DNA from: an uncultured Lachnospiraceae bacterium
GTDB lineage: Bacteria > Bacillota > Clostridia > Lachnospirales > Lachnospiraceae
Assembly: GCA_948444865.1 (NCBI GenBank)
Contig: CAOJVE010000003.1
Location: 1-41,812, forward strand
Length of the DNA: 41,812 nucleotides
Direction of reading: 5' to 3'
Under the pieces are notes generated by a model that had not been told where the DNA came from, made no database searches, and saw only the letters and a program-made list of their open reading frames with translations. Positions 5,892 through 41,726 of this stretch are shown piece after piece (the first letter of the stretch is position 1; each line of letters begins with the position of its first letter). The translations under genes and the position numbers were made by a program.

Positions 5892-5930
5892 CTTAGGAAA
5901 TCCTCTCTATCTTACTTAAGTATTTTAGGT

Positions 5931-6000
5931 CATTGCGAAACTGACCTTTCGCATTCCCGCGCTTGTTCAAAATAGATAAAACGGAGCCAAAAAACCGTTT
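5931..6000. repeat. Dispersed repeat related to one arm of the 27.6-kb element (copy A)
   Basis: CATTGCGAAA...TCGCAT...TTCAAAATAGATAAAACGGAGC..AAAAACCGTTT aligns with the reverse complement of 27688-27756. Confidence 0.65.
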
Positions 6001-6049
6001 CTGCAAACGCAGGCGAACGAAAGGGGCGCTTCGCAGTTATCTGTATTTT

Positions 6050-7090
6050 TCAGAATACCGGGGTCCACGCTTTCATGGCCAGGGCAACCGTCACCCCATC
6101 CCGGACTGTCTTTCTCAAAATCAACTTTCCATTGCCGCTGGCCAGTACGGCGCTTCGCTCGCACACATTGTCCACCCCGGCAACGGATTTCACAAAGGGG
6201 GAAGGGGTATACGTACCCGCAAGAGCCTGCAATTCCCCCGCTGAAAATGTTTCGTACGGCAGGTTCCACTTTTTGCAGCTTTCCACAATACCCGCCTCGT
6301 CCTTTTTTAAATCAATGCTGGCCGCCCGTTCAAAAGCGTCCGCAGATATCTGCAGGGAATCGGCCGCGCTTTTCACCGCCGCTTCCACCGCCGCGCCGGG
6401 CGTGCCCTTTCGGCAACCGATTCCCACGGCAATCACTTTGGGAATCAGATACAAAGTGTTGGGAAATGGCTGTTTTTTGCAGCTAACCGTCACCGCGATT
6501 CCAAGCTTTGGCCCACCGTCGGCAGTCAGCCCTTTCGGCAGCTGTCCTTCCCAGGAAAAATCGCTGGAAAATCCCACCGGCTCTCCGGCCAGTAGCTGCG
6601 CGGACACCTCTTTGGCCAGCTTCATATCCGCGATATGGCATCCGTTTTTCTTGGCAAACACATCCACGGCAAACAGGCCGTTTAAGTCCGTGGCCGTGGT
6701 GATCACCGGCTGGGCGCCAATGATTTCCGCCGCCGTCTGCGCCAGATCATTTCCGCCGCCTATATGGCCGGACAGAAGGGAGATGGAAAACCGGCCCCGC
6801 TCGTCCACCACTGTCACCGCCGGGTCTGTGGTCTTATGGCGAATGTAAGGCGCGATGCTGCGCACGGCGATGCCGCAGGCGCCTACATAGATCAGAGCGT
6901 CCATCCGGGAGAAACTCTTCCCAGTCCATTCTCCCACCGATTCCTTCACCTGAATCTTTTGCCCTTCGTCTCCCATATAACGGCTCTTTGCATAGACTTC
7001 CACCTGCCATCCCTGCCGCTCTAGGCCCTCTTTAAGCCTCTCCCCCAGCGCAAAGCCCCGGCGGCTGAAGCTGATAATACCTGCCTTCAT
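6050..7090 (-). CDS. cbiG: Cobalt-precorrin-5A hydrolase
   Basis: MKAGIISFSRRGFALGERL; IYVGACGIAVRSIAPYIRHKTTDPAVTVVDERGRFSISLLSGHIGGGNDLA; AVGIGCRKGTP. Confidence 0.95.
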   Translation of the reverse strand: MKAGIISFSRRGFALGERLKEGLERQGWQVEVYAKSRYMGDEGQKIQVKESVGEWTGKSFSRMDALIYVGACGIAVRSIAPYIRHKTTDPAVTVVDERGRFSISLLSGHIGGGNDLAQTAAEIIGAQPVITTATDLNGLFAVDVFAKKNGCHIADMKLAKEVSAQLLAGEPVGFSSDFSWEGQLPKGLTADGGPKLGIAVTVSCKKQPFPNTLYLIPKVIAVGIGCRKGTPGAAVEAAVKSAADSLQISADAFERAASIDLKKDEAGIVESCKKWNLPYETFSAGELQALAGTYTPSPFVKSVAGVDNVCERSAVLASGNGKLILRKTVRDGVTVALAMKAWTPVF

Positions 7091-7105
7091 CTTCGCACCT
7101 CGCTG

Positions 7106-7870
7106 CTACTGGGGTTTCGTGCCGGTCCGGAATTCAGTTGTAAATTCTGGATGATAAAGCTTCGACCTTTCATAAGAACAGGCAGATACCGCGTCGCCGA
7201 TGATCATCAGCGCGGTCTTGGTTATGTTATGCTCTTTCGCCGTCTGCGCCAGCGTTCCCACGGTGCACACGTATGTCTCCTGGTCATCCCAGGTGGCTTT
7301 GTAAACGATTGCCGCCGGCGTGTCCTTGGTATATCCGCCGGTCACCAGACGGTCGCTTAACTCCTCCAGCATGGATGTACTTAAGAACACCACCATGGTA
7401 GCCTGGTGCGCCGCAAAGGATTCGATGCTCTCCTTATCTGGAACCGGCGTTCTTCCCGCCATACGGGTGATAATCACGCTCTGGGAAATGTCCGGCAGGG
7501 TGTATTCCAGATCCAGCGCCGAGGCCGCGCCGCAGAATGAGCTGACGCCCGGACAGGAGTCGTATTTGATTCCGTCTTCGTCCAGCGCATCCATCTGCTC
7601 ACGAATTGCGCCGTAAATGCATGGGTCCCCTGTGTGCAGGCGCACGGTCATTTTCCCGTCTTTCTCCGCCTGGCGCATCACGTCCAGCACCTCTTCCAGC
7701 GTCATCTTCGCGCTGTCGTAAATGCTGCATCCTTCTTTCGCATAGTCCAGAAGCTGCGGATTTACCAGAGATCCCGCGTAAATAATCACGTCCGCCTGCT
7801 CCAAAAATTTCTTTCCCCGCAGGGTAATCAAATCCGGCGCTCCCGGCCCTGCTCCCACAAAATGTACCAT
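7106..7870 (-). CDS. cbiF: Cobalt-precorrin-4 C11-methyltransferase
   Basis: MVHFVGAGPGAPDLITLRGKKFLEQADVIIYAGSLVNP; HTGDPCIYGAIREQMDAL. Confidence 0.95.
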   Translation of the reverse strand: MVHFVGAGPGAPDLITLRGKKFLEQADVIIYAGSLVNPQLLDYAKEGCSIYDSAKMTLEEVLDVMRQAEKDGKMTVRLHTGDPCIYGAIREQMDALDEDGIKYDSCPGVSSFCGAASALDLEYTLPDISQSVIITRMAGRTPVPDKESIESFAAHQATMVVFLSTSMLEELSDRLVTGGYTKDTPAAIVYKATWDDQETYVCTVGTLAQTAKEHNITKTALMIIGDAVSACSYERSKLYHPEFTTEFRTGTKPQ

Positions 7871-7877
7871 AATATTC

Positions 7878-8567
7878 TTATCCTTCCTGTTCTTTTACAA
7901 TAATCAATGAATAGTAGCCTGCCTGATCCGGCATTTCAGCCAGGGACTCATAAACCTTTTCGTCTTCCATTCCGCAGTTCTCAATCATCTTGCAGATGGC
8001 GCCGCGGGCTTCTAATTTCTCCCGCACCTTGCCCATGGTCTTCCCAGCCTTCATCAGCACCTTCACGCCGGGCAGATCCAGCGCTTCCTCGACGCCGTAA
8101 GACGCCGGAATCACATGCAGGGGTTCCGCTTTTTCCACCAGACCTGTGTTCAGACGGGCGGAAACGGCGCAGAACGAGGGAATGCCGCTGACAATCTCCA
8201 GAGGGTACCCCATAGCCTGTATGCGTTTATGTATATAAATATACGTGGAATAGACGGTGGGGTCGCCCAGTGTCAAAAAGGCCACCTGCTTGCCCTCCTT
8301 CAGATATTCCGCAATCATGGCCGCCCCTTTTTCGTGGCTTTCTTCCAGCTTTTTCTTATCCTTGGTCATGGGCATGGGAACCGCCACCAGCTCCTTTTCG
8401 TCCAGCTGCGGGTAGGCGCCTTTTACGATTTTATAAGCCACGCTCTCCCGGGGTTCCTCCCCCGGAACGGCTATAATCGCGCTTTCTTTCACAATGCGCA
8501 GGGCTTTTAAAGTTAGTAATTCTGGATCGCCCGGCCCCACGCCAATTCCATAAAGTTTACCTTCCAT
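7878..8567 (-). CDS. cbiL: Cobalt-factor II / precorrin-2 C20-methyltransferase
   Basis: MEGKLYGIGVGPGDPELLTLKALRIVKES; LTLGDPTVYSTYIYIHKRI; SGIPSFCAVSARL. Confidence 0.94.
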   Translation of the reverse strand: MEGKLYGIGVGPGDPELLTLKALRIVKESAIIAVPGEEPRESVAYKIVKGAYPQLDEKELVAVPMPMTKDKKKLEESHEKGAAMIAEYLKEGKQVAFLTLGDPTVYSTYIYIHKRIQAMGYPLEIVSGIPSFCAVSARLNTGLVEKAEPLHVIPASYGVEEALDLPGVKVLMKAGKTMGKVREKLEARGAICKMIENCGMEDEKVYESLAEMPDQAGYYSLIIVKEQEG

Positions 8568-8579
8568 GTGTGTTTCTCC

Positions 8580-9716
8580 TTATATCTTTTTCATCAGTTC
8601 TCTGGCATTTCTCGTCTCTCCCAGATAGCCCCGGACGCTGGAAAAAAATACCGCGCCCAATTCGATCTGGCTGTAGGAGCGATGCTCCAGATAAAATTGG
8701 ATTTTATCCGCAATCTGCTCCATCGTGGGCTTTAACACATGCTCCCTCTCCAGGATGTCCAAAGCCTCGTCGGTGGTCCTGGTCTTCAGGATGTCCAGGG
8801 CGCCTTCCCGGGAAATTCCCGCCCGCAGCGCATTTGCCGCCATGATCTCGCACCGGCTGTCCGCGCAGTGGGAATGGGTGTTCATGATGCCCCCGGCCAC
8901 TTTGATAAGCTTGCCGATGTGTCCCACAAAGAGGATGCCGGACACGCCCTTTTCCACCGCCAAATCTATGGTTTCCCCAATGTAATTGCTGCACTTCATG
9001 TTTTTCTCAAATGGCAGCGACATATGTTCTTTCAGAAAAGTCTCTCCATAATTTCCGGGAGTCACTAAGAGCGTCTGCCCGCCCTGGGCGATGCGCACAT
9101 TCATTTCCACTTCAATGCTTTTCACCAACGCCTGCTCGCTCATAGGCTCCACAATGCCCGAAGTCCCCAGAATGGAGATGCCGCCTTCGATGCCCAGACG
9201 GGGGTTGAAGGTCTTCTTAGCCCTCTCCTGTCCGTCGGGAACCGTAACCAGCACGTCCATGCCGCCCTCGTAGCCATGCCTGCGGCAGACTTCCTGCACT
9301 TCCCGCGCAATCATCTCTCGGGGCACATGATTGATGGCCGCCTGCCCCGGCGGCTGGTCCAGTCCCGGCAGCGTCACCCGGCCTACGCCCAGTCCGCCGT
9401 CGATGTGAACGCCCGGCTCCTCGCATCTGGACGCCTGTGCGCAGATCAAAAGCCCATGGGTGGCGTCCGGGTCGTCTCCCCCGTCTTTTACCACGCCGCA
9501 GGACACCCGGTCTTTCTCCCGGCAAATGTTCTCCAGGGAAAGCTTCAAAAGGATGCCTTTGGGCGTCATGATCTCCACCGTCTCTGTCAGAGCGCCGCCC
9601 AGGAGCATTTCGACCGCTCCCTTGGCCGCAGCCGCCGCGCAGGAGCCAGTCGTGTATCCCCTGCGCAGTTTTTTATTATTTTTGATTACATATTTATCTT
9701 CTGTCTGCAGGCTCAC
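8580..9716 (-). CDS. cbiD: Cobalt-precorrin-5B C1-methyltransferase
   Basis: LRRGYTTGSCAAAAAKGAVEMLLGG; SILGTSGIVEPMSEQAL; GHIGKLIKVAGGIMNTHS. GTG start, RBS AAGGAGG. Confidence 0.95.
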   Translation of the reverse strand: MSLQTEDKYVIKNNKKLRRGYTTGSCAAAAAKGAVEMLLGGALTETVEIMTPKGILLKLSLENICREKDRVSCGVVKDGGDDPDATHGLLICAQASRCEEPGVHIDGGLGVGRVTLPGLDQPPGQAAINHVPREMIAREVQEVCRRHGYEGGMDVLVTVPDGQERAKKTFNPRLGIEGGISILGTSGIVEPMSEQALVKSIEVEMNVRIAQGGQTLLVTPGNYGETFLKEHMSLPFEKNMKCSNYIGETIDLAVEKGVSGILFVGHIGKLIKVAGGIMNTHSHCADSRCEIMAANALRAGISREGALDILKTRTTDEALDILEREHVLKPTMEQIADKIQFYLEHRSYSQIELGAVFFSSVRGYLGETRNARELMKKI

Positions 9717-9770
9717 CAGTTACCTCCTTGGTCCATTTGTTATGAAAATATTGTCTTTTTCACTGCATTC

Positions 9771-9799
9771 ATTATATAATTATGGACCGTAAAAGTCAA
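9771..9799 (-). promoter_or_regulatory. Sigma-70-type promoter of the cob/cbi operon
   Basis: Minus strand TTGACT - 17 nt - TATAAT, about 50 nt upstream of the cbiD RBS; -35 overlaps the stop of the preceding ORF. Confidence 0.75.
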
Positions 9800-10236
9800 T
9801 ATTTTCCCAGAAAGCCCTTTCTTTTGCGCTTTTTTCTCCTATCCACCGTATCCGCGGGCTTGTCCTCCTTCTCCGACGCGTCCATGCCGCTTAAGGCGGC
9901 GTTGATGTCCGTCAGCTTCAGCTCTCCCAACTGGTAAACCAGGGATCTGCTGATCCAGGTCTGGTAGTCCATCTCTTCCTCTGGATGTTTCTCCCTCCAG
10001 GCGTCGTAATCCCCGTGATGGTCTTTTTTTACAAACTCGTCCTGGATGGCAAAAGTAGCCGAAACAGCCAGGGCCAGGGCTTCTGAAAGGGTCATGTCCA
10101 GCTCCTCAATATAATGGCCGCTTTCCATGGGAACCCCTTTGGACCGCATTTGATTCACTTCCTGGTACAGTCTTTGGAAAAAATATGTTCCATTGTCCGA
10201 ATAGACAAAACCGATCATATCGCTGTAGTTCTGCAT
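9796..10236 (-). CDS. Hypothetical protein (146 aa)
   Basis: ORF MQNYSDMIGFVYSDNGTYFFQRLYQEVNQ... with AGGAGA RBS 6-10 nt upstream; no family recognised. Confidence 0.65.
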   Translation of the reverse strand: MQNYSDMIGFVYSDNGTYFFQRLYQEVNQMRSKGVPMESGHYIEELDMTLSEALALAVSATFAIQDEFVKKDHHGDYDAWREKHPEEEMDYQTWISRSLVYQLGELKLTDINAALSGMDASEKEDKPADTVDRRKKRKRKGFLGKY

Positions 10237-10239
10237 TGA

Positions 10240-10400
10240 TTTTCTCCTGTTTCTAAACCTACACGCGCCCACATGGCAGACTCACTGCCATAAAATGAAA
10301 GCTGTGCGGGCGCATTTGGCGTCCCTGAATATATGCCGCCTGCTCGGCGGCGAACTCTTATAGCAATGTCGCCTACTCCTAGCCTTATAAGTATACCACG
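10240..10400 (-). ncRNA. Candidate structured RNA / 5' leader, family not recognised
   Basis: Minus strand contains three helices between ATAAGGCTAGGAGTAGG and the RBS: GGCGA..TCGCC, GCCGCC-gagca-GGCGGC, and a long GCGCCCGCACA..TGTGGGCGC stem enclosing ATGGCAG-tgagt-CTGCCAT. Confidence 0.5.
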
Positions 10401-10442
10401 GACTGCCGGAAAATGCCATACGCTGTTGGAACTGTTTTGTGC

Positions 10443-10474
10443 AAAAAGGCCGCCCCATCTCAGGGACAGCCTTT
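10443..10474 (-). terminator. Rho-independent terminator of the L,D-transpeptidase gene
   Basis: Minus strand AAAGGCTGTCCC-tgagat-GGGGCGGCCTTTTT, stem with U-tract just after the stop at 10492. Confidence 0.75.
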
Positions 10475-10491
10475 GTCTTTTTATATAATTT

Positions 10492-12810
10492 TTATAAATA
10501 CCCTTTCGCAGCCGGATCGGTGGGGTCCCAGTTATACGCCGCCGTGATCTGGCGGTACGCCTTATGGTCGAAGGGGCCGGCATAGCTGTAATCCTGCACC
10601 TCTATGGTGGCGCCGTTACAGTTCTCGTAGATCCACTTGGCGTCTATAACCGCCACGCGGATGCATCCGTGGGAAGCCGCCTCGCGGCCCAGTTTGTTCC
10701 ACTCGTTGGCCGGCAGACTGTATGGATTCGCCACAGCCCCGGATACGGAATGGATGAAAATGCCGTTGGGCTCACTGACAAGGGTCGCGTACTGGCCCCA
10801 GCTCGGTCCCATGAGAATCTGCCAGCGTCCCGCCCGCGTGCCTCTGAATGTGCCAGTGGGCGTAGGCGTCGCCGGAAGCCCTACGGAACATGGCATCGCC
10901 ACTACCGGTATGTTGTACTGGCCGCTTGTGTCTCTGGCGTAAACAGTGATCTGATTCCTTCTGCGGTCCACGCGCAGCATATAGGGGCCGGAAACCCGCC
11001 CGCGCACATCCTGCACCAGATAGCCTTTGTCATTGAAGAAATATTTATAGCGGGTTCCGTTCTGCACGATGTAAGTCCAGCCCTTGGCAAATTTCCCATT
11101 TTCTTTGGCGTATTTCCACTTGCCGTTGGACTTAATCCATCTCTGAGAGTAAACGCCGCTCCCGTTGATGTAGCCCCATTTGCCGTCTTTCTGCATCCAT
11201 TTGTTGGTGACCATCACGCCGTTCTTTCCCAGATAATAGTAGGAACCTTTATATTTCTTCCATTGCTCGGTGAGAAGGCTGCCTTTTGCGGAAACATAAT
11301 ACCATTTGCCGCCCTTTTTCGTCTGCAGCCACCCCTTCGGGTAAGCATAGCCATTCTGTTTCTTGGAGGTCTGGGCTTTGAAATAATAGAGCTTTCCGTT
11401 TATTTTCTTCAGACCGCCTTTATACATCCTGCCGTTCTTATCGAAAGAATAATATTTCCCGGACACCTTTGCCAGCTCCCGGACTTCCGCCTGGCAGTTG
11501 GTTTTAAAATAATACCATCTGCCGCTGATTTTCTTCCAGCCTTTAATCGCGGACCCTGCCGGCGCCGCGCCTGCCTTGCTGGGGCGGAAATAATATTTCT
11601 TTCCGCTTACGGTCTTCAGTCCGGTAACCATGCGGCCGTTTGCGTCCAGATAATATTTATAGCCGCTTATGGTCTTCAGCTTATTCTTTACGTTTCCCCC
11701 GTCGTCTTCAAAATAATGCCAATATTTTTTGCCGTTCTCCGTGATCTCCTGCCATTTCGTCTTGATTTGACGGTAATGACTCTTATGGAAATAGTACCAG
11801 TTCCCGTTGCTAAGCTTTTGCCAGCCGGTCTCCTCCAGCCGCTTGCCGTCGGGCGAGAAGTAATACTGCTTGCCGTTGATATTCTGGAAACTGTTGGCGA
11901 TCATCGCTCCGTCCGCGCCAAAATAATAATAGCTGCCGCTTACTTTCTTCTGCGCGTTTTTTACTTTCTTCCCATTTTTGTCCAGATAATATGTCTTCTG
12001 ATCGATTTTCTGCATGCCTATTTTGGACGTATCCCACAGGCCGCCTTCTTTCAGATACAGCCATGCGTCTTTGTCGGACGCATACATCCACCCGACTTTT
12101 GTCACCATCTGACCCAGCTGAGAATTTTGCGGCGTGTCGCCATCCACGCTTGCGTAATCTTTTTCCGACAGGAAATAATAGGTCCCGGGCTGGGACACAT
12201 TCACGCTGACTTCGTGGGCGCCTGTAAGCATGTATCCGTTCTTGCCAAATATGTAGGACGCCTTGCCGCCCTGGGAAAGCTTCACCTCCACCCGGCCGTC
12301 TTTTTCCAGGTAGTATTCGCTGGTTCCCGGTTTGCGCAGCCTCCAGTGGCCGTTTAACTCTTCCCAGTATGTATCGTTCACTTCCTCCACAGGGCCTTCG
12401 TTGCCAGAAACGGCCGCCCTCTCTTCTGGCGCAGGGTCCGCCTCATTTTCCGAAACAGCCGCAGCGTCATCCCCGGAAACGGACGGAACATCTGTTTCCT
12501 TTGGCTCCTGCGTCTCTTCCGGTTCAAGCGTCTCTTCTGGAGCGATTGTTTCTTCCGGTTCCTCTATGATATCCTGCGCCGGCGGCGTTTCCACTGCATT
12601 TTCAGACAGATCGGGCTCTTCTTCGTCCAGAACGTTTTCAGATTCTGTGGGCGGCGCCTCCGGTTCTTCTTCCTGTGGGATAAATTCTTCAGCATCCTGC
12701 CGCTCTGCGATCACTTCCTCATTGACGGCCGCACCCACAGGCGCCGCCCCTGAAAAGGCCATGCAAACGGCCAGCGTCCAGGCCAGCAGTCCTTTGCTCT
12801 TCGTTCTCAA
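10492..12810 (-). CDS. Secreted L,D-transpeptidase (YkuD) with N-terminal acidic linker and many cell-wall-binding (choline/glucan-binding type) repeats
   Basis: Signal peptide MRTKSKGLLAWTLAVCMAFSGAAPVGAA; repeated ...G.WYYF...G....GW.. units; C-terminal catalytic motif EAASHGCIRVAVIDAKWIYEN. Confidence 0.9.
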   Translation of the reverse strand: MRTKSKGLLAWTLAVCMAFSGAAPVGAAVNEEVIAERQDAEEFIPQEEEPEAPPTESENVLDEEEPDLSENAVETPPAQDIIEEPEETIAPEETLEPEETQEPKETDVPSVSGDDAAAVSENEADPAPEERAAVSGNEGPVEEVNDTYWEELNGHWRLRKPGTSEYYLEKDGRVEVKLSQGGKASYIFGKNGYMLTGAHEVSVNVSQPGTYYFLSEKDYASVDGDTPQNSQLGQMVTKVGWMYASDKDAWLYLKEGGLWDTSKIGMQKIDQKTYYLDKNGKKVKNAQKKVSGSYYYFGADGAMIANSFQNINGKQYYFSPDGKRLEETGWQKLSNGNWYYFHKSHYRQIKTKWQEITENGKKYWHYFEDDGGNVKNKLKTISGYKYYLDANGRMVTGLKTVSGKKYYFRPSKAGAAPAGSAIKGWKKISGRWYYFKTNCQAEVRELAKVSGKYYSFDKNGRMYKGGLKKINGKLYYFKAQTSKKQNGYAYPKGWLQTKKGGKWYYVSAKGSLLTEQWKKYKGSYYYLGKNGVMVTNKWMQKDGKWGYINGSGVYSQRWIKSNGKWKYAKENGKFAKGWTYIVQNGTRYKYFFNDKGYLVQDVRGRVSGPYMLRVDRRRNQITVYARDTSGQYNIPVVAMPCSVGLPATPTPTGTFRGTRAGRWQILMGPSWGQYATLVSEPNGIFIHSVSGAVANPYSLPANEWNKLGREAASHGCIRVAVIDAKWIYENCNGATIEVQDYSYAGPFDHKAYRQITAAYNWDPTDPAAKGYL

Positions 12811-32237: not shown

Positions 32238-32277
32238 GAGTTTCGTTGGATATGCTAGAATTAATGGGATTTTATCT

Positions 32278-32359
32278 GCGGAAATGACGGAATTGGCAGA
32301 CGTGCAGGATTTAGGTTCCTGTGTCGAAAGGCGTGAGGGTTCGAGTCCCTTTTTCCGCA
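32278..32359 (+). tRNA. tRNA-Leu (anticodon TAG)
   Basis: Acceptor GCGGAAA/TTTCCGC, anticodon arm CAGGA-TTTAGGT-TCCTG, extended variable arm, T arm GAGGGTTCGAGTCCCTT. Confidence 0.95.
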
Positions 32360-32365
32360 TAAAAT

Positions 32366-32407
32366 AAGGCTTTGTCTTAATCGAAGGATTCGGGCAGAGC
32401 CTTTTTT
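32366..32407 (+). terminator. Terminator after tRNA-Leu
   Basis: AAGGCTTTGTC...GGCAGAGCCTTTTTTT, 11-bp stem with two G-U pairs, T-tract. Confidence 0.8.
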
Positions 32408-32490
32408 AATTCCATCGCCGCAAAGCCGGTTGCGCAGTCAACGGTAAAATAAACGGGCTTCTCCCACCGTTGACTGCCCCCGTCTGGCCC
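32377..32490 (-). repeat. Coding-like recurrent tail sequence with 12-bp inverted repeat
   Basis: Minus strand reads GGSQRWEKPVYFTVDCATGFAAMELKKALPESFD*; contains GCAGTCAACGGT (32434-32445) / ACCGTTGACTGC (32466-32477), 20-nt loop. Confidence 0.5.
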
Positions 32491-32535
32491 TGCTGTTTGG
32501 TAATTATGATTTTTTCAAGATTGTCTAACGCATTT

Positions 32536-32844
32536 TCATTCGGCAATTCCCAATAAAATATCCACAGCCAGCTGCAATTCCGGCTTAGCGCGATACGCCT
32601 TGATAATCGCCCGCTCTTTTTCATCCAATTCGTCTGAGGATAAATGGACATCCAGTAATTTACTGGGGGAAATATCCAACGCTCTGCATATATCGGCAAG
32701 TATATCCGCATCCGGTCTGTTGATCCCCTGTTCCCAATTTGAAACTCTGCTGTTATTGATGCCCAATTTTTCAGCTAACTGCATTTGGTTCATGCCGCAT
32801 GCCTCTCGATATTTACGGATACGTTCTCCGATTTCGTACTTCAA
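32536..32844 (-). CDS. XRE-family transcriptional regulator
   Basis: KYEIGERIRKYREACGMNQMQLAEKLGINNSRVSNWEQGINRPDADILADICRALDISPSKLL; probable TTG start at 32844 behind AGGTGAT. Confidence 0.85.
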   Translation of the reverse strand: MKYEIGERIRKYREACGMNQMQLAEKLGINNSRVSNWEQGINRPDADILADICRALDISPSKLLDVHLSSDELDEKERAIIKAYRAKPELQLAVDILLGIAE

Positions 32845-32859
32845 TTTTATCACCTGCCT

Positions 32860-33090
32860 TTGTTTTACCAGAAAGTTCGCGCACATATAGACAACAACGG
32901 ATTGAAACAAATATCTGTTGCGGAAAAAGCCGGCATACCCAAGAATACGTTCAATGCAATTTTGGACGGAAAACGCACATTATACGCAGATGATCTGCGG
33001 GCGATCTGCCTTGCGCTGAATGTGAGTCCAGAACTATTTATTGAAGTGAAGCGTTCAGCTCTAAGCGAATGCAATCCAGATTTTCTGTAA
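32860..33090 (+). CDS. Short XRE/Cro-type HTH protein
   Basis: FYQKVRAHIDNNGLKQISVAEKAGIPKNTFNAILDGKRTLYADDLRAICLALNVSPELFIEVKRS; TTG start inferred, no strong RBS seen. Confidence 0.65.
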   Translation: MFYQKVRAHIDNNGLKQISVAEKAGIPKNTFNAILDGKRTLYADDLRAICLALNVSPELFIEVKRSALSECNPDFL

Positions 33091-33390: not shown

Positions 33391-34610
33391 TTTTATTCAT
33401 TTATGGTTATTCCCCTCCCCTTTCACCGTATTCTAATTAAGCACACAATACATGAAAGGGGCGCAAAAAAATGGATACAGAAGTTTCACCCCGCAAAATT
33501 CCCATCGACCGCTTGACGCTTGCGCGCCTTAAAAGCGGTTTCATCGCGCTGGATCTTAAGACCACCGGACTGGATTCCTTGACGGACCGAATCGTTGAGA
33601 TCGGGGCGGCGCGTTTTGCTCATGGAGAGGTCAAAGAAACTTTTTCCACGCGGATGCGCCCGGACGCGCCCACGTCTTCTCACGCCGGGAAGCCTGACGA
33701 CGACGAAACGCGCTTTGACGCGCCCGGCGAGGCCAAAGCCATTTCAAAATTCGTCGAATTCATCAGCGACGCTTTGTCTGGAAAAACCGTGATGTGCGCC
33801 TACAACGCCAGCTTCGGCTTTAACTTCCTGCGCAGGGCGCTCACCCGCTCCCACGTCCACTCAAAAATCGTCTACGTGGACACGCTGGCCGCCTCAAAAG
33901 CCGCCATCGCCGGCCTTAACGACTACCGACTGGAGACGCTCCAAAATTATTTTAAACTAAACAGCCCACAGCCCCTTCGACCGCAGGCGGGCGCGCTTTG
34001 CTGCGGAGAGATTCTGTGCAAATTGCTGCCCCTTATGGAAACGCAGGACTTGTCCTTTGACAATGCTGAACGCGGCGCCAGGTCGAACCGCCCCAGCAAA
34101 GGCAGGCCGATCATAGACTGCCCCGAAAATTACTGCGTGGTCAGCATTGAAACCACCGGCCGCTCCCTGACGTGGGATAAAGTGACGGAAGTGGCGGCGC
34201 TTAAATTTCACAGCGGAACGCTCGCCGACTCTTTTTCCGCCTCCATAAAGCCCGACAACGCAGACGCCCAAATCGTCTGGCGCAGGTTCCTGCGTTTTAT
34301 TGGGAACTCCATTCTCGTGGGGCACAACCTCCATCTCGACATTGATTTTTTATACGACAGCGTACAGCGCTGCCTTCATTTGCCTTTGGCCAACGATTAC
34401 GTCAACGCCTGCAGTCTGGCGCGGCTGCTCCTTCCCCATTTACCCCATCACGGACTATACGCCCTGGCCGATTATTACAACTGCAGGCCCATCACTTTTT
34501 ACGGCGCGTCGTCCAAATCCCAGCTCACAGCCCAATGCTACGCAAATCTTGTGAAAGACATCGTGCGCATATACGGAAGCGCCGAGGAATTTCGCAGGGC
34601 TTTCCCATGT
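33391..34610 (+). repeat. Direct repeat copy 1 (upstream region plus double-DnaQ-like gene)
   Basis: Aligns from TTTTATTCATTTATGGTTATTCCCC through the ORF to ...TTTCCCATGT with 36331-37544. Confidence 0.9.
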
Positions 34611-34622
34611 AAAAGAAAATAA
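33471..34622 (+). CDS. Tandem double DnaQ/DEDDh-exonuclease-fold protein, catalytic motifs degenerate (paralog 1)
   Basis: Domain 1 FIALDLKTTGLDSLTDRIVEIGAARF...MCAYNASFGFNFLRRAL; domain 2 VVSIETTGRSLTWDKVTEVAALKF...LVGHNLHLDIDFLYD. Confidence 0.8.
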   Translation: MDTEVSPRKIPIDRLTLARLKSGFIALDLKTTGLDSLTDRIVEIGAARFAHGEVKETFSTRMRPDAPTSSHAGKPDDDETRFDAPGEAKAISKFVEFISDALSGKTVMCAYNASFGFNFLRRALTRSHVHSKIVYVDTLAASKAAIAGLNDYRLETLQNYFKLNSPQPLRPQAGALCCGEILCKLLPLMETQDLSFDNAERGARSNRPSKGRPIIDCPENYCVVSIETTGRSLTWDKVTEVAALKFHSGTLADSFSASIKPDNADAQIVWRRFLRFIGNSILVGHNLHLDIDFLYDSVQRCLHLPLANDYVNACSLARLLLPHLPHHGLYALADYYNCRPITFYGASSKSQLTAQCYANLVKDIVRIYGSAEEFRRAFPCKRK

Positions 34623-34735
34623 CGTTCCAAAGGTAAAGTTACGCAATTCTGTGGCTCTAATCATCTGTACTTACAGCCGTTTTTCTGATATGATAGAGCA
34701 GAAAAAGCGGCATCTAAAAAAGGAGGCGGCCTCCT

Positions 34736-36310
34736 ATGAAACGGAGAAATAAAATCTATCTTTATATGACCATGTTCTTTCTGTGCCTATATATCGGGCT
34801 GCTGGCGCTCCTCTATTTTTCTGAATATACAGACAGCGATGCGACAATCCGCACATTCAGTGACGCATTCTGGTACTCACTGGTCACGATGACCACGGTC
34901 GGGTATGGCGATGTGACGCCGGTAACTCCCATGGGCCACGCGGTCGGCGTTGTTTTCCTCTTATTTTCCGCGGGCATGATCGTGACATTGATGGGCGCCG
35001 TCCTGTCTTTTGTCACCAGCGAAGGCCTCCCGTTCCTCATGCTCAGCCTGCAGCGGAAGAAAAACTGGTATTATTTTGCAGACTACAGCATAGAATCAAA
35101 TACCCTGGCCGAAAACATCTGCAAGGAAGACCCGGACGCCGTGATCATCTTCGGCGAGAAAAAAGACAGCCAGATGGAATTTCCCGACTATCCCTGCCTG
35201 TTCATCAGCGCGTCTCCGGCGAGGATCGTCGCCTGCAAAAAAAACGCCGGGACAAAGTGTAAGATCTTTTTTATGAAAGAAAACGATATTGGCGTCAATA
35301 TCCGCGCCGTTGACATATATAAATTGCCCGTGGAAGTCTATGCCAGAACCACCAACGGGCAGGAACGCCTCTCAGGGAATATAAGATTTTTCCACAGTTA
35401 CGACTGCTGCGCCAGACAATACTGGCGTTCCAAGCCACTGTGCAGTCACGAAGACACGATCGTGATCATCGGTTTTGGAAACTACGGACGATGCATCCTC
35501 GAACGGGCGATTCTGACAAATGTGCTCTCTGTGAACCAGCGCGTAGCGTATCACATCTTCGGGGATTCCAGCGGATTCCTCGACATGCACCGCCATCTGC
35601 ACAGGATGTTTTCCATAAATGAAACCTCTGAGACTGGTGACTCTCTGCTCTTCCATGAAAAACCCTGGGAAGCGCGTTACGAGATCCTGGAACGGGCGGA
35701 CCGGATCATCGTCTGCGATGATGTGGAAACAAATGGGTGGAATATATACTGGCGGCTGCATAAATATTACAAGATTCACGGCCACATCGACCTGTACAGC
35801 AACCGTCGGGCGCCCGGCGTATCCTATTTTGGAACAAACGAAGAGATCTATACGCCGGATCAGATCATGCGCACATCGCTGAATAAAGCGGCCATCACGA
35901 TCAATGAGATTTTCCGCGCGTCCGTATCCTACCCGACGCTTGACTGGGATGAGCTTGATGATTTTCACCGGGAGTCCAAGATAAGCGCGGCCGACCACCT
36001 TTTGATGAAGATCCGCATCCTCTTAAAAGACGAACAAGTCACAGAATTCACGGCCGAGACGGTGGAACGGGCCTATCAAAGATATTGCGAGACGAAACAG
36101 CTGGAAGGCGCACAGGATATGTACCGCAGACTGGACCATATGCGCTGGCTGCGCTTTTATACATTTTATAACTGGCGTTATGGGCCCGTGCGGGATGACG
36201 CGGCCAGACAGCACCCGATGCTTTGCCCTTACGCAGAGCTGACGCAGGAACAGAGACGGGAACGGGACGCTGCGTGGGAACTTCTGGGAAGCATCGATGT
36301 AGAGATCTAG
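34736..36310 (+). CDS. 2TM potassium channel with RCK/TrkA-N region and C-terminal RyR-like domain
   Basis: Selectivity filter TMTTVGYGD between two TMs; Rossmann IVIIGFGNYGRCILERAI; C-term LDHMRWLRFYTFYNWRYGPVRDDAARQHPMLCPYAELTQEQRRERDAAWELL resembling RyR (PF02026). Confidence 0.88.
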   Translation: MKRRNKIYLYMTMFFLCLYIGLLALLYFSEYTDSDATIRTFSDAFWYSLVTMTTVGYGDVTPVTPMGHAVGVVFLLFSAGMIVTLMGAVLSFVTSEGLPFLMLSLQRKKNWYYFADYSIESNTLAENICKEDPDAVIIFGEKKDSQMEFPDYPCLFISASPARIVACKKNAGTKCKIFFMKENDIGVNIRAVDIYKLPVEVYARTTNGQERLSGNIRFFHSYDCCARQYWRSKPLCSHEDTIVIIGFGNYGRCILERAILTNVLSVNQRVAYHIFGDSSGFLDMHRHLHRMFSINETSETGDSLLFHEKPWEARYEILERADRIIVCDDVETNGWNIYWRLHKYYKIHGHIDLYSNRRAPGVSYFGTNEEIYTPDQIMRTSLNKAAITINEIFRASVSYPTLDWDELDDFHRESKISAADHLLMKIRILLKDEQVTEFTAETVERAYQRYCETKQLEGAQDMYRRLDHMRWLRFYTFYNWRYGPVRDDAARQHPMLCPYAELTQEQRRERDAAWELLGSIDVEI

Positions 36311-36330
36311 CAGTAACGCCTGCCCATGTT

Positions 36331-37544
36331 TTTTATCCATTTATCGTTATTCCCCACGCCTTTTATCGTATTCTGATTAAATACACGAAAGGGGCGAAAA
36401 AAATGGATACAGAAGTTTCACCCCGGAAAATTCCCATCGACCGCCTGACGCTTGCGCGCCTTAAAAACGATTTCATCGCGCTGGATCTTAAGACCACCGG
36501 GCTGGACTCCTTAAAGGACCAAATCGTTGAGATCGGAGCGGCGCGGTTTGTCCATGGGCAGGCCAAAGAAACTTTTTCCGCGCGGGCGCGCCCGGACGCG
36601 CCCACATTTTCCCATGCCGGAAAGCCTGGCGGCGCCGTCGAAAATGTCTTTGACGCGCCCGGCGAGGCCGAAGCCATTTCAAAATTTGTCGAATTCATCG
36701 GCGACGCTCTATCTGGAAAAACCGTGATGTGCGCTCACAACGCCGGCTTTGGCTTCAACTTTCTGCGCAGAGCCCTCACCCGCTCCCACGTTCAATCGAA
36801 GATCGTCTACGTGGACACGCTGGCCGCCTCAAAAGCCGCCATCGCCGACCTTAAAAATTACAGACTGGAGACGCTTGGCAATTATTTTAAACTAAACAAC
36901 CCACTGCCCCTTCGGGCGCAGGCGGGCGCGCTTTGCTGCGGCGAGATTCTGTGCAAACTGCTGCCCTTGCTGGAAACGCGGGATTTATCCTTCGACGACG
37001 CTGTACGCGGCGGCGGGCCGAACCGGCCCGGCAAAGGCAGGCAGGTCATAGACTGCCCCGAAAATTACTGCGCGGTCAGCATTGAGACCACCGGCCGTTC
37101 CCTGACGTGGGACAAAGTAACCGAAGTGGCGGCGCTGAAATTTATCAGCGGAGCGCCTGCCGATTCCTTTTTAGCCTCCATAAAACCCGACTGCCCGGAT
37201 GCCCGAAGCGTCTGGCGCAGGTTTTTGCATTTTATTGGAGACTTTATTCTCGTGGGGCACAACATCCATCTCGATATTGATTTTTTATACGACAGCGTGC
37301 AGCGCTGCCTCCATTTGCCTCTGGCCAACGATTACGTCAGCACGCGCAGCCTGGCGCGGCTGCTCCTTCCCCATTTACCCCATCACGGACTATACGCCCT
37401 GGCCGATTATTACAACTGCAGGCCCATCACTTTCTACGGCGCGTCGTCCAAATCCCAGCTTACAGCCCAATGCTACGCAAAGCTTGTGGAGGATATTGTG
37501 CGCATATACGGAAGCACTGAGACGTTTTGCAGGGCTTTTCCATG
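36331..37544 (+). repeat. Direct repeat copy 2
   Basis: Same organisation as 33391-34610, about 2.94 kb downstream. Confidence 0.9.
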
Positions 37545-37566
37545 TGAGGGAACTTTGTTTCGTTAA
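36403..37566 (+). CDS. Tandem double DnaQ/DEDDh-exonuclease-fold protein, catalytic motifs degenerate (paralog 2)
   Basis: MDTEVSPRKIPIDRLTLARLKNDFIALDLKTTGLDSLKDQIVEIGAARF..., highly similar to 33471-34622; start chosen by alignment to copy 1. Confidence 0.8.
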   Translation: MDTEVSPRKIPIDRLTLARLKNDFIALDLKTTGLDSLKDQIVEIGAARFVHGQAKETFSARARPDAPTFSHAGKPGGAVENVFDAPGEAEAISKFVEFIGDALSGKTVMCAHNAGFGFNFLRRALTRSHVQSKIVYVDTLAASKAAIADLKNYRLETLGNYFKLNNPLPLRAQAGALCCGEILCKLLPLLETRDLSFDDAVRGGGPNRPGKGRQVIDCPENYCAVSIETTGRSLTWDKVTEVAALKFISGAPADSFLASIKPDCPDARSVWRRFLHFIGDFILVGHNIHLDIDFLYDSVQRCLHLPLANDYVSTRSLARLLLPHLPHHGLYALADYYNCRPITFYGASSKSQLTAQCYAKLVEDIVRIYGSTETFCRAFPCEGTLFR

Positions 37567-37612: not shown

Positions 37613-40600
37613 TTACTCCACGCTTTTTAAAGATTCCACCATATCGATTTTTTTCAATTTAAAGTGCATGGTCATATTCACAAAAGCGGAAAATCCCACG
37701 GTAAATAAAATACTGTACAAAAAGCTGGGTCCATAGATGCTGCGCCCAAACATAGCCGCGTCTACCTCCACCGTAACGATGACGAACCGATGGAGCAAAA
37801 TCCCAAGCCCGGCCCCGACAGCCGCTCCGATCAGGGTCAGCAGCACGTTTTCCCGGAATACATACGCGGAAACCTCGCCGTCGTAGAATCCCAGCACTTT
37901 CAGCGTGGCCAGCTCCCGCTTTCTCTCCGTGATATTGATATTGTTCAGGTTGTACAAGACCACGAAGGCCAGCATGCCCGCGGACACGATCAGCACCACG
38001 ATTACGGAGTCCAGGCTGCCTAGCATGTCTTCCAGCTGGTCGGCGATGCTGCCTGTGTAGCTGATGCTCAAAGCCGCCGGGCAGGCGAGAATGTCCCGCC
38101 CCACTTTCTCCGGATCCGAGCGGTATTCTTCCTGCAGAATCACGAGGCTGTCGCTGTACGCCGCCTCCTGGCCAAAAGCTTCCCGATAGGCCTGCGGGGT
38201 CATGTATATATAATGGCTCATGTAATTCTCGCAGATTTTCCCAACGGTCGCCTGGCCGCCGGCCCCTTCTTCCAACTGAAGCTCTATGCGGCCCCCGGGC
38301 TTTACGTCCAGCATTTTCGCCGTTTTCTCGGAGATGGCCACGCCCGCCTCGTTCAGCGAAAACTCCTCCTGGTCTTTGCGGTCCCGCAGCGTCACCAGCT
38401 TGGAAAACCGATTCGTCTCCTCTGGCACAATGAGATAAATGTCCGTATCTTTCTTTTTGCCGGAGGCCGTCATCTTCTGAAAATAAACCTGGCTCGCCTT
38501 CTCGATGCGCTCGTCCGACTCCAGAAAATTGCGAAGCTCGGCCTTTTCCTCCTCGGTGGCGTCCTCGTCCTGCAAAACCGTCGCGTCAAAATGCTGCAAC
38601 TGGCCGTACTGCAAAGTCCCTATGTCCATAATGGAGTCCTGCAGGCCGAATCCCACCAGCATCAGGGCCGTACAGCCGCCGATTCCGATAATGGTCATAA
38701 AAAACCGCTTTTTATAGCGGAAAAGATTCCGCGCCGTGGATTTCCATGTGAAGTTAAGCCGCTTCCATATAAACGGCAGGTATTCCAGCAGCACCCGTTT
38801 TCCCTCCTGGGGAGAGGCTGGGCGCATGAGGGCCGCCGGCGTTTCCATCAATTCCCGGTAGCAGGCGGACAGCGTGGCCAGCAGTGTGCAGGCCACCGCC
38901 GCTATGGAGCCGATCAGCGCATAGAGCGGCTGATACGGGATTTTCACCACGGGCATGTGGGTGTACATAATCCCATAGGCTGTGATTACAATATACGGCA
39001 GAATCTTCTCACCGATGAGCGCGCCGCACACGCTTCCGCCCAGCGTGGCCAGCAGCGCATACCCCAGATACTTGGACGCAATGGCCCCTTTGGAGTAGCC
39101 CAGCGCTTTGAGCGTGCCGATCTGCGTGCGCTCGTCCTCCACCATCCGGGTCATGGTGGTCAGGCTGATAAGAGCCGCCACCAGGAAAAACAGAACCGGG
39201 AACACCCGCCCGATGTTGCGGATTCGGTCCGCGTTGTCGCCGTAACCGCTGTATTCCGGCAGCGCGTCCCGGTCGTCCACATACCATTTCGGTATTTCCA
39301 GGCCGTCCGCGTCTTCCTGCGCCTCCTGGAGCTTTTTCTGGCCGTCCGCGATGCTCTCCTGCGCCTCTTTTTCAGCGTCCTTAAATTCCTTTTCCCCGTC
39401 CTTTAGCTTTTTCTCGTTTTCCTCGATTTCTTTGGCGGCGTCGGCCAGCTTCTGTTCGTTCTCTTCGATGTCTTTTTCCGCCTGGGCAAGCTGCGCTTCG
39501 CTGTCGCTGATCGCGCGGGCCGCCGCGTCCAGCTGGGCCTGCCGCTCATTTAACTGAGTCCGGCCGCTGTTTATCTGGGCCTGGCCGCTGTCAATCTGCG
39601 CCTGCGCCGCATCCAGCTGACTTTTGGCGCTGTCCAGCTCCTGCCGGCCGCTGTCCAGCTGCTTTTTCGCTTCCTCCAACTGGGCGCGGGTCTGGGACAA
39701 CGCCTGTTCCTGGGTCTGAATCTGGGCCGCCTGCGCATCCAGCCTGGCTTGCGTCTGCGGGTCGTTCACGCCCGACGCGGCCACAAACTGGCTATAGGAA
39801 CTGCGCGCCTGCTCCAGCTGCTCTTTCGCGTGGGAAAGCGCGGCCGCCCCGTCCTCGTACTGCTGCCATCCCTGATTATACTCGGCTTCCTTCTGGTCAA
39901 ATTCCTGTTTGGACGCGTTCCAATCCGCGTATCCCTGGCTGGTCTGCTGCTGGGACGCGTTTAGCTGGCTCTGCTGGGCATCCAGCTGGGCTTTGGCGGA
40001 CTCCAGCTGAGGGATGCCGTCCTGCCGCTGTTTCTTAGCGTCCTCCAGCTTTTTCTTCCCATCCTTTAGCTCACGCTTTCCGTCCTCTAGCTTCTTTTTC
40101 CCGTCTTCCAGCTCACGCTTTCCGTCCTCCAACTCCTTTCTGCCGTCGTCCAGCTCCATTTTGGCCTTCACCAGCTCTTCGGTGGCTTTTGCCCTGCCGT
40201 CCTCCAACTCTTTTCTGGCATCGGCCAGTTTCTCTTTTACCTCCTGCTGCACGGAGTCGTAGCGGGCCTGGCAGCGCTCCTCCTCTATGTCCTCCACGCG
40301 GCCTTTCACTTTTTTCACCAGATTTTCATACAGATCCGTATAGCTGGTCTGACCTTTGGCGCCTTTTGCCAGCAAATAGGCCACCGTATATGTATCCCGC
40401 TGGAAATTTTCCTCGGTCACATAGGCGAACCCGCTGACTTCCCCAGAGCCCAGCGTGGTATTTCCCCGGGCAAATGATATGTACATGGGGCTGCTGCAGG
40501 TTCCCACCACCGTGAAATCTTTCTGCTCAAGGATGCTGTTTGCGTCCTCCGTGTAAACTTCTATGGAATCGCCGATTTTCAGGGTTCCGTCGCTGACCAT

Positions 40601-41005
40601 CTCGTCGTCGGCCAGGCACTCGCCCTTTTTCTTTGGCAGCCGGCCCTTCACGACCGTAACCTGATTGACCTGTTCGGGCAGACTCTCCAGGTGGATGACC
40701 CGCTGCTCGCCTTCTTCCCCGCTTAACACGTCCAAAGCGTAGCCGCCCTCTACAAACTCCACGCCTTTAATTTCCCTTAAAGCCTCCAGGTCTTCTTCCG
40801 TCAGGCCGTAAGACCCCATCACCCGCAGGTCCATCAGATTGACGCTGTCGTAGTAAGCGTCCCCGGAATAACGCATGTCCGGAGACGACGCCTGGATTCC
40901 CGAGAAAAACGCCACGCCCAGGGCGACGATAAAAAATATTGAAATAAACCTTGCAAAGCTGTTTTTGATGTCCATAAAGAAATCTTTTCTAAGCGCTCTT
41001 TTCAC
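37613..41005 (-). CDS. FtsX-like ABC permease with very long extracytoplasmic coiled coil
   Basis: KRALRKDFFMDIKNSFARFISIFFIVALGVAFFSGI; two FtsX modules (LVAALISLTTMTRMVEDERTQIGTLKALGYS; LYNLNNINITERKRELATLKVLGFYDGEV); KKLEDGKRELEDG heptads. GTG start at 41005 behind TAGGAGA. Confidence 0.9.
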   Translation of the reverse strand: MKRALRKDFFMDIKNSFARFISIFFIVALGVAFFSGIQASSPDMRYSGDAYYDSVNLMDLRVMGSYGLTEEDLEALREIKGVEFVEGGYALDVLSGEEGEQRVIHLESLPEQVNQVTVVKGRLPKKKGECLADDEMVSDGTLKIGDSIEVYTEDANSILEQKDFTVVGTCSSPMYISFARGNTTLGSGEVSGFAYVTEENFQRDTYTVAYLLAKGAKGQTSYTDLYENLVKKVKGRVEDIEEERCQARYDSVQQEVKEKLADARKELEDGRAKATEELVKAKMELDDGRKELEDGKRELEDGKKKLEDGKRELKDGKKKLEDAKKQRQDGIPQLESAKAQLDAQQSQLNASQQQTSQGYADWNASKQEFDQKEAEYNQGWQQYEDGAAALSHAKEQLEQARSSYSQFVAASGVNDPQTQARLDAQAAQIQTQEQALSQTRAQLEEAKKQLDSGRQELDSAKSQLDAAQAQIDSGQAQINSGRTQLNERQAQLDAAARAISDSEAQLAQAEKDIEENEQKLADAAKEIEENEKKLKDGEKEFKDAEKEAQESIADGQKKLQEAQEDADGLEIPKWYVDDRDALPEYSGYGDNADRIRNIGRVFPVLFFLVAALISLTTMTRMVEDERTQIGTLKALGYSKGAIASKYLGYALLATLGGSVCGALIGEKILPYIVITAYGIMYTHMPVVKIPYQPLYALIGSIAAVACTLLATLSACYRELMETPAALMRPASPQEGKRVLLEYLPFIWKRLNFTWKSTARNLFRYKKRFFMTIIGIGGCTALMLVGFGLQDSIMDIGTLQYGQLQHFDATVLQDEDATEEEKAELRNFLESDERIEKASQVYFQKMTASGKKKDTDIYLIVPEETNRFSKLVTLRDRKDQEEFSLNEAGVAISEKTAKMLDVKPGGRIELQLEEGAGGQATVGKICENYMSHYIYMTPQAYREAFGQEAAYSDSLVILQEEYRSDPEKVGRDILACPAALSISYTGSIADQLEDMLGSLDSVIVVLIVSAGMLAFVVLYNLNNINITERKRELATLKVLGFYDGEVSAYVFRENVLLTLIGAAVGAGLGILLHRFVIVTVEVDAAMFGRSIYGPSFLYSILFTVGFSAFVNMTMHFKLKKIDMVESLKSVE

Positions 41006-41015
41006 AGTCCATCTC

Positions 41016-41726
41016 CTACCATTCAATCTCTTCCACAGGCAACGGCGTTTCGTTCATTTCCATGGCGGACACTTTCCCATTCTTGATCTGAATCACCCGG
41101 TCCGCCATCGGCGTGAGCGCCGAATTATGGGTGATCACAATCACAGTCATCCCTCTTTGCCTGCACATATCCTGCAAAAGCTTCAGAATCGCTTTTCCCG
41201 TCTGGTAATCCAGTGCCCCGGTGGGCTCGTCGCACAAAAGCAGCTTGGGATTTTTCGCCAGCGCGCGGGCAATGGACACCCGCTGCTGTTCGCCGCCGGA
41301 GAGCTGCGCGGGAAAGTTTTTCAGCCGCTCGCTCAAACCCACTTCCTTTAAAACCTGGCCGGCATTCAGCGGATTTTTGCAGATCTGAAGCGCCAGTTCC
41401 ACGTTCTCCAGCGCCGTTAAATTGGGCACCAGATTATAAAACTGAAACACAAAGCCAACGTCCTCCCGCCTGTACGCCGTCAGCTGCCTGGACGAATAGC
41501 CGGCCACATCCTGCCCGTCCACCCACACATGGCCGGCGGAAGCCTGGTCCATGCCGCCCAGAATATTCAAAACCGTCGTCTTGCCCGCGCCGCTGGGGCC
41601 CACAATGATTACAAACTCACCTTTATTTATGGAAAAATCAATGCCGTCCACCGCTTTGATCTGCACGTCGCCCTTTCCATAAACCTTTGTGACCTGTTCC
41701 AGTGTTACAAAACCTTTTTCCATCAT
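41016..41726 (-). CDS. ABC transporter ATP-binding protein (MacB/LolD-like)
   Basis: [55 protein letters not shown]. Confidence 0.96.

What the first reader, a model, noticed from the sequence alone, without database searches (positions are those of the whole stretch)
33391..37566. K+ channel-RyR gene flanked by directly repeated double-DnaQ-like genes: candidate undescribed system
Seen directly: gene order exo-like 1 / channel / exo-like 2, all on the plus strand, with the two flanking genes and about 70-80 bp of upstream DNA forming ~1.2-kb direct repeats. The channel couples an ion pore (TVGYGD) to RCK-type sensing and a C-terminal RyR-like domain. Ion channels fused to ligand-sensing domains, next to nuclease-fold proteins, suggest a signalling or conflict function. 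The functional link and any defence role are inference. The repeats could also allow RecA-dependent loss or amplification of the channel.
Basis: partly seen in the sequence, partly recalled or inferred. Interest (0 to 1): 0.75.

Follow-up and report, generated by a model that had tools for sequence, protein, structure and literature searches.

The report
Potassium channel with ADP-ribose-binding-type sensor
A gut bacterium carries a potassium channel ending in the ryanodine-receptor domain that phages use to grip the immune signal cyclic ADP-ribose; its relatives often sit beside the TIR genes that can make such signals, while the duplicated nuclease-like genes flanking this copy are a local accident.

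Summary
The anatomy is real: double-DnaQ gene 1 (33471-34622), K+ channel (34736-36310) and double-DnaQ gene 2 (36403-37566), all on the plus strand, with the DnaQ genes forming ~1.2-kb direct repeats. The proposed three-gene system is not supported. None of 80 named close orthologs of the channel has a DnaQ-like gene on the sequence held around it (up to 10 kb each side), and only this genome among 397 of its family has the double-DnaQ protein. Both DnaQ copies lack most DEDDh catalytic acids but diverge under purifying selection (dN/dS 0.27), so they look like lineage-specific, nuclease-dead proteins.

The channel is the interesting part. It is a 2TM pore (TVGYGD) with two RCK-type domains, closest in structure to GsuK, a NAD+/ADP-gated K+ channel, plus a RyR domain. 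That domain's best phage match is RyDEP, which binds and cleaves 2'/3'cADPR; three of its four ligand residues align directly. Across the bacterial family, 16 of 45 RyR-membrane-protein loci have a TIR gene within 5 kb (0.27 expected), including one TVGYGD channel. The window's own clade is an orphan branch without TIR neighbours. Best reading: an ADP-ribose-class-nucleotide-gated K+ channel; its relatives are probable effectors of unreported Thoeris-like systems.

The parts
34736..36310 (+). K+ channel protein, 524 aa: 2TM pore with TVGYGD filter (residues 54-59), two tandem RCK-type domains (about 110-235 and 238-400; GFGNYG nucleotide motif at 246-251 in the second), linker, C-terminal RyR domain (about 455-517)
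   Evidence: Pfam; conserved columns; AlphaFold2; Foldseek to GsuK
36098..36286 (+). RyR domain of the channel; H468, W471 and H493 align with RyDEP H75, W78 and H100; D511 is the likely equivalent of D117 (one-residue indel)
   Evidence: D511 invariant in 13 close orthologs
33471..34622 (+). double-DnaQ-like protein copy 1, 383 aa, both domains missing most DEDDh catalytic residues
36403..37566 (+). double-DnaQ-like protein copy 2, 387 aa, 84% identical to copy 1
33391..33470 (+). duplicated upstream region of copy 1 (5' part of the direct repeat)
   Evidence: alignment
36326..36402 (+). duplicated upstream region of copy 2
   Evidence: alignment

Best explanation
The functional unit is the channel alone. 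It is probably a tetrameric K+ channel of the GsuK/MthK kind: a 2TM pore closed or opened by a gating ring of two RCK domains per subunit, with a RyR domain hung on the C-terminus as an extra ligand sensor. Sequence and anatomy point to an adenine/ADP-ribose-type nucleotide (NAD+, ADPR, or the 2'/3'cADPR isomers made by TIR enzymes) as the ligand. Binding would open the pore and let K+ flow, changing membrane potential and cell K+. In related loci the same kind of protein (2TM, RCK, RyR) is encoded next to a TIR protein with a repeat or STAND sensor part; there it would be the effector of a Thoeris-like relay: sensor-TIR detects a trigger, converts NAD+ to a cADPR isomer, and the RyR channel opens. 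The window's copy belongs to an orphan clade with no TIR neighbour, so in this genome the ligand is more likely a metabolic or stress ADPR-class nucleotide, or a signal made elsewhere. The flanking double-DnaQ genes are a recent lineage-specific duplication of a catalytically degenerate DEDDh protein and are not part of the mechanism. Shown: gene anatomy, fold match, conserved ligand residues, TIR adjacency in relatives, lack of DnaQ association. Inferred: ligand, opening on binding, K+ flux, defence role.
For: RyR domain by Pfam and PDB RyR chains. The best phage match is DyoEdafos gp78 = RyDEP, 45% over 53 aa, E 2e-6; RyDEP binds and cleaves 2'/3'cADPR through H75, W78, H100 and D117, and 6 of 8 tested phage homologs bind these ligands (PMC13232231). 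In the channel family the equivalents are H in 109, W in 104 and H in 110 of 112 sequences. AlphaFold2 model pLDDT 87.7; ten best PDB hits are all GsuK chains, and GsuK is activated by NAD+ and ADP via RCK2 (PMC3510474). TIR_2 within 5 kb at 16 of 45 RyR loci against 0.27 expected, 10 of them within 600 nt. G086 has a TVGYGD channel-RyR gene with a TIR protein (TIR_2 E 7e-13, ThsB_TIR E 1e-8) starting 2 nt downstream. Tree.
Against: The window clade itself shows no TIR link: 0 of 13 members of that clade in the tree have a TIR neighbour, one weak TIR-like hit (E 4e-4) in the 80 named loci, no TIR_2 or ThsB_TIR in the window's genome. Only 1 of 17 TVGYGD-type members is TIR-adjacent against 17 of 30 non-canonical ORFs. 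RyR domains also bind ATP-type ligands in animal RyRs, so ligand identity is open. D117 aligns to D511 only with a one-residue shift. The chance expectation assumes random gene placement; clustering in defence islands would raise it.
Confidence: 0.5

Rival explanations
1. The window channel is a solitary metabolic K+ channel: GsuK-like gating by NAD+/ADP through RCK2, with the RyR domain as an accessory sensor of ATP/ADP/ADPR level, serving K+ and energy homeostasis and unrelated to phage defence.
For: Standalone gene in 80 orthologs with no conserved neighbour family; no TIR_2 or ThsB_TIR in its genome; TIR_2 in 4 of 13 close-ortholog genomes, two of them weak hits, no higher than the family rate of 87/200; GsuK precedent.
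Against: Relatives with the same RyR residues sit next to TIR genes far above chance, including one canonical channel. The patchy distribution (36 of 397 family genomes) and different neighbourhoods are unusual for a housekeeping channel.
Confidence: 0.33
2. One reading: double-DnaQ proteins and channel act together, for example nuclease-fold proteins sense or process nucleic acid and gate the channel.
For: Adjacency and shared strand in this one genome; duplicated copies kept under purifying selection, dN/dS 0.27.
Against: No DnaQ relative on the sequence held around any of 80 orthologs or around the five further orthologs fetched; double-DnaQ protein found only in this genome among 397 of the family; lepA and ftsX, which bound the locus, lie on different contigs in G001, G002 and G004, so this gene order is a species-specific junction.
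Confidence: 0.04
3. The window channel is an intact effector that answers cADPR isomers made by a TIR protein encoded elsewhere, missed in the 92%-complete draft or supplied by mobile elements: an orphan Thoeris-like effector.
For: RyR ligand residues conserved as in RyDEP; TIR-adjacent relatives; genome incomplete, 224 contigs.
Against: TIR_2 also not found in G001, G002, G003, G014, G085, G158, G220 and G252, which carry close orthologs; a repeated absence is not a sampling gap.
Confidence: 0.13

Closest known systems
GsuK, dual-RCK NAD+/ADP-gated K+ channel of Geobacter sulfurreducens (PDB 4gx0-4gx5)
   Same: 2TM pore plus two RCK-type domains per subunit; ten best structural hits; glycine nucleotide motif in the second RCK domain, as in GsuK RCK2
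   Different: The window channel has an additional C-terminal RyR domain; sequence identity only 11-14%
RyDEP, phage RyR-domain cADPR glycosidase/sponge (DyoEdafos gp78; PMC13232231)
   Same: RyR (R12) domain, PF02026; ligand residues H75/W78/H100 match H468/W471/H493
   Different: RyDEP is a small soluble anti-defence protein; here the domain ends a K+ channel. Catalytic D117 aligns to D511 only with an indel
Thoeris anti-phage systems (TIR ThsB plus cADPR-binding ThsA effector)
   Same: Relatives of the channel sit beside TIR genes, several matching ThsB_TIR; the effector carries an ADPR-binding-type domain
   Different: Effector is an RCK channel-RyR, not SIR2-SLOG or macro-TM; TIR partners carry WD40, LRR, TPR, MORN or STAND parts; no TIR in the window locus
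Animal ryanodine receptors
   Same: Share the RyR/R12 domain; ion channels regulated in part by adenine nucleotides
   Different: Pore, size and ion selectivity unrelated; the bacterial pore is a K+ filter with RCK domains
DEDDh (DnaQ/PolC-type) 3'-5' exonucleases
   Same: Fold family of the flanking proteins (PF00929; PADLOC DEDDh)
   Different: Two fused domains with D-x-K/G/G and S-x-E/D/K in place of D-x-E/D/D, and no motif-III His

Membership tests
RCK-gated 2TM K+ channel (GsuK/MthK kind) | Two TM helices and K+ selectivity filter T-V-G-Y-G | tested here: met
   TVGYGD at residues 54-59; Ion_trans_2 E 1.3e-13; helices 2-31 and 65-94
RCK-gated 2TM K+ channel (GsuK/MthK kind) | Cytoplasmic RCK domain(s) with Rossmann fold | tested here: met
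   Not seen by Pfam but the model matches GsuK, MthK and Slo gating rings
RCK-gated 2TM K+ channel (GsuK/MthK kind) | K+ conduction gated by a ligand | not testable with these tools
   Needs flux or electrophysiology
RyR (R12, PF02026) ADPR-binding domain | Pfam match above the gathering score | tested here: met
   31.0 bits against a cut-off of 27.4
RyR (R12, PF02026) ADPR-binding domain | Ligand residues H75, W78 and H100 of RyDEP | tested here: met
   H468, W471, H493
RyR (R12, PF02026) ADPR-binding domain | Catalytic Asp D117 of RyDEP | tested here: inconclusive
   Direct column is R510; D511 is one residue away and invariant in 13 close orthologs
Thoeris-like TIR system (window locus) | TIR gene adjacent or in the genome | tested here: not met
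   No TIR_2 or ThsB_TIR in the window's genome
Thoeris-like TIR system (relatives of the channel) | TIR gene adjacent | tested here: met
   16 of 45 loci within 5 kb against 0.27 expected; G086 TVGYGD channel 2 nt from a TIR gene
Thoeris-like TIR system (relatives of the channel) | cADPR synthesis, effector activation, phage protection | not testable with these tools
   Needs biochemistry and phage challenge
DEDDh exonuclease (flanking genes) | Four catalytic acids plus motif-III His in a domain | tested here: not met
   Domain 1: D28, K30, G116, G174, with L169 for His; domain 2: S225, E227, D290, K349, with Y344 for His; aligned to relatives that keep the motifs
   0 of 80 orthologs; double-DnaQ only in this genome

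The most novel reading that the evidence does not exclude
Bacterial RCK K+ channels with a RyR domain are cyclic-ADP-ribose-gated effectors of a distinct class of TIR (Thoeris-like) immune systems, in which depolarisation by K+ flux replaces NAD+ depletion. They would be a bacterial counterpart of the long-debated cADPR control of animal ryanodine receptors. The window's clade would be effectors that kept the sensor but lost the neighbouring TIR gene.
Probability: 0.35. Interest if true: 0.85.

Novelty: new variant of a known kind. Interest (0 to 1): 0.6.

Why it matters
Whether cADPR acts on ryanodine receptors directly through a RyR domain is a long-standing question, reopened by RyDEP. A small bacterial K+ channel with the same domain and ligand residues, in a family whose members often sit beside TIR genes, makes it testable: one purified domain, a handful of ligands, one flux assay. 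It would also add an ion-channel effector class to TIR-based bacterial immunity and suggest one more reason why phages carry RyR-domain sponges.

Tried and rejected
DnaQ/channel system: rejected (0 of 80 orthologs). DnaQ genes as active nucleases: rejected on the motifs; an AlphaFold2 model from the two copies was useless (pLDDT 32). DnaQ genes as decaying pseudogenes: rejected, open frames and dN/dS 0.27. Phage or plasmid origin of the channel: no hit in viral contigs or plasmids. Close relatives of the double-DnaQ protein in GTDB contigs, viral contigs or phages: none in GTDB contigs, only a 62-residue weak match in viral contigs, weak partial matches (at most 31% identity, under 60% coverage) in fecal phage records. 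Conserved operon partner of the close channel orthologs: none. Conserved promoter upstream of the channel: none, only a Shine-Dalgarno-like GGAG. PADLOC hit for the channel: none. Prior description of RyR channels with TIR: none in the held library, which lacks most subscription papers; comparative-genomics work on nucleotide conflict systems (from memory) may mention RyR domains and was not readable here.
Full report
Observation. The window carries, on the plus strand, a double-DnaQ gene (33471-34622), a 524-aa channel (34736-36310) and a second double-DnaQ gene (36403-37566). The two flanking proteins are 84% identical. About 80 bp upstream of each start is also duplicated, while nothing downstream of the stops is. 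Pfam gives two RNase_T/DEDDh stretches in each flanking protein, and Ion_trans_2 plus RyR in the channel.

The flanking genes. Neither domain is a complete DEDDh site. Aligned to relatives that keep the motifs (G285, G381, G335), domain 1 reads D28-x-K30, G116, L169/G174, and domain 2 reads S225-x-E227, D290, Y344/K349; the substitutions at the acidic positions and at the motif-III histidine are the same in both copies. Between copies dS is 0.31 and dN 0.085, ratio 0.27, with purifying values along the whole gene. So these are not decaying genes; they look like maintained, probably nuclease-dead proteins. In 60 relatives the protein has no full-length counterpart. In 397 family genomes the best matches outside this genome are 37-38% over one domain, and a peptide-pattern scan of GTDB contigs found none. 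The double-DnaQ architecture is therefore lineage-specific as far as these searches see.

Eighty named channel orthologs (52-82% identity, mostly Lachnospiraceae, several from mouse gut) were fetched with up to 10 kb on each side; contig ends shorten some. None has a protein similar to the double-DnaQ protein at E 1e-3, and none holds a second channel. No neighbour family recurs at a fixed place in more than 6 loci. The lepA and ftsX genes that bound the window locus lie on different contigs in G001, G002 and G004, so this junction is specific to the window species. The DnaQ pairing is a local accident.

The channel. Thirteen close orthologs keep the TVGYGD filter or a near variant. An AlphaFold2 model built on a 30-row alignment has mean pLDDT 87.7 and shows two membrane helices, two Rossmann-type domains and a C-terminal helical domain. 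Its ten best PDB matches are all GsuK chains (E 2.7e-7 to 5.3e-5); Slo2.2, MthK and Slo1 follow among the hits, and an RyR_12 chimera appears at E 1.1e-3. GsuK is a dual-RCK K+ channel activated by NAD+ and ADP through the glycine motif of RCK2 (PMC3510474); the window channel has its GFGNYG motif in the second domain too.

The RyR domain. The best phage match to the C-terminal 104 residues is gp78 of mycobacteriophage DyoEdafos, 45% over 53 residues, E 2e-6. That protein is RyDEP, shown in a 2026 preprint to bind and cleave 2'/3'cADPR through H75, W78, H100 and D117; six of eight tested phage homologs bind the same signals (PMC13232231). The first three residues align to H468, W471 and H493, and across 112 channel-family sequences they are H in 109, W in 104 and H in 110; some sequences occur twice because two collections overlap. 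D117 falls on R510, one residue from D511, which is invariant in 13 close orthologs; this point is open.

TIR neighbours in relatives. PF02026 is found in 46 of 299 family genomes but in 10 of 399 of the wider phylum sample, 3 of them from the same family. For 45 loci with a RyR membrane protein, TIR_2 positions in the same genomes put a TIR domain within 5 kb at 16 loci, against 0.27 expected by random placement; 10 are within 600 nt, and 16 of 18 TIR-adjacent RyR ORFs share strand with the TIR gene. TIR_2 is otherwise present in 87 of 200 family genomes. The TIR partners carry WD40, LRR, TPR, MORN, Sel1, AAA_16/NB-ARC or nSTAND parts, and several match ThsB_TIR. The closest parallel to the window protein is G086 (locus L090): a TVGYGD channel with RyR domain, 33% identical, ending 2 nt before a TIR protein. 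The random-placement expectation is generous to the claim because defence genes cluster.

Limits for this copy. A maximum-likelihood tree places the window protein in a fully supported clade of 13 orphans with no TIR neighbour; TIR neighbours occur in 8 of 17 rows of the non-canonical clade and once in the sister group of the orphans. TIR_2 was not found in the genomes G000-G003, G014, G085, G158, G220 and G252, and ThsB_TIR was not found in any of these nine. So a TIR relay is well supported as a hypothesis for the family and not for this copy. Five further TVGYGD-type orthologs fetched later also lack TIR neighbours.

Mechanism offered. A tetrameric K+ channel whose gating ring reads an adenine dinucleotide or ADP-ribose-class ligand. 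In TIR-linked relatives the ligand would be a cADPR isomer and opening would depolarise the cell as an abortive response. In the window species the ligand is more likely metabolic or comes from an unseen source. Ligand, gating direction and biological role are inference.

Known or new. I found no description of RyR-domain K+ channels or of RyR/TIR gene pairs in the held library; that library lacks most subscription papers. I rate it a new variant of a known kind: a GsuK-type channel with a RyR sensor, with family members that look like an unreported Thoeris-like effector class.

Noticed in passing
L104 (G261) 5280-7397 and L108 (G182) 9179-11302: 705-707-aa membrane proteins with a pore-like segment (YTITMILDAGC) and, for the L104 one, no Pfam hit, beside RyR membrane proteins and TIR genes; they recall CASTOR/POLLUX-type channels and may be second channel subunits.
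   Followed up: partly
L084 (G257) 4310-9275: Three-gene block: TIR-Sel1 protein, 752-aa membrane nSTAND/AAA-like protein (NVYGVKD-type N-terminus), RyR membrane protein. L047 (G025) has a similar NVYGVKD protein near its RyR gene, with a weak Card1-like match and a T4SS coupling-like protein.
   Followed up: partly
L110 (G115) 7391-11532: 920-aa protein joining a RelA/SpoT synthetase-like domain to a RyR domain, directly beside a TIR-LRR gene: a possible alarmone/ADPR crossover.
   Followed up: partly
L046 6560-8722, L089 5835-7751, L090 5759-7582: TVGYGD channels in G008, G256 and G086 each have a 607-720-aa membrane protein directly upstream on the same strand; two show weak TrkA_N matches. 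Possible heteromeric partner.
   Followed up: partly
window 32277-33090: tRNA-Leu followed by two oppositely oriented small HTH (Cro/CI-type) ORFs (32536-32910 minus, 32785-33090 plus) just before the DnaQ repeat; this may be a remnant of an element integrated at the tRNA. lepA and ftsX are not neighbours in sister genomes.
   Followed up: partly
window 37613-41026: 1137-aa FtsX-type permease with a long coiled-coil-like insertion that includes ~21-nt repeats (40017-40242); the protein is 71-77% identical in the genus.
   Followed up: no
L042 7877-8329 and similar ORFs in 12 of 80 channel loci: A family of 'IYIDKTELI...RPRRFGKS' proteins recurs near channel orthologs at no fixed position; probably a common mobile or repeated family in these genomes.
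   Followed up: no
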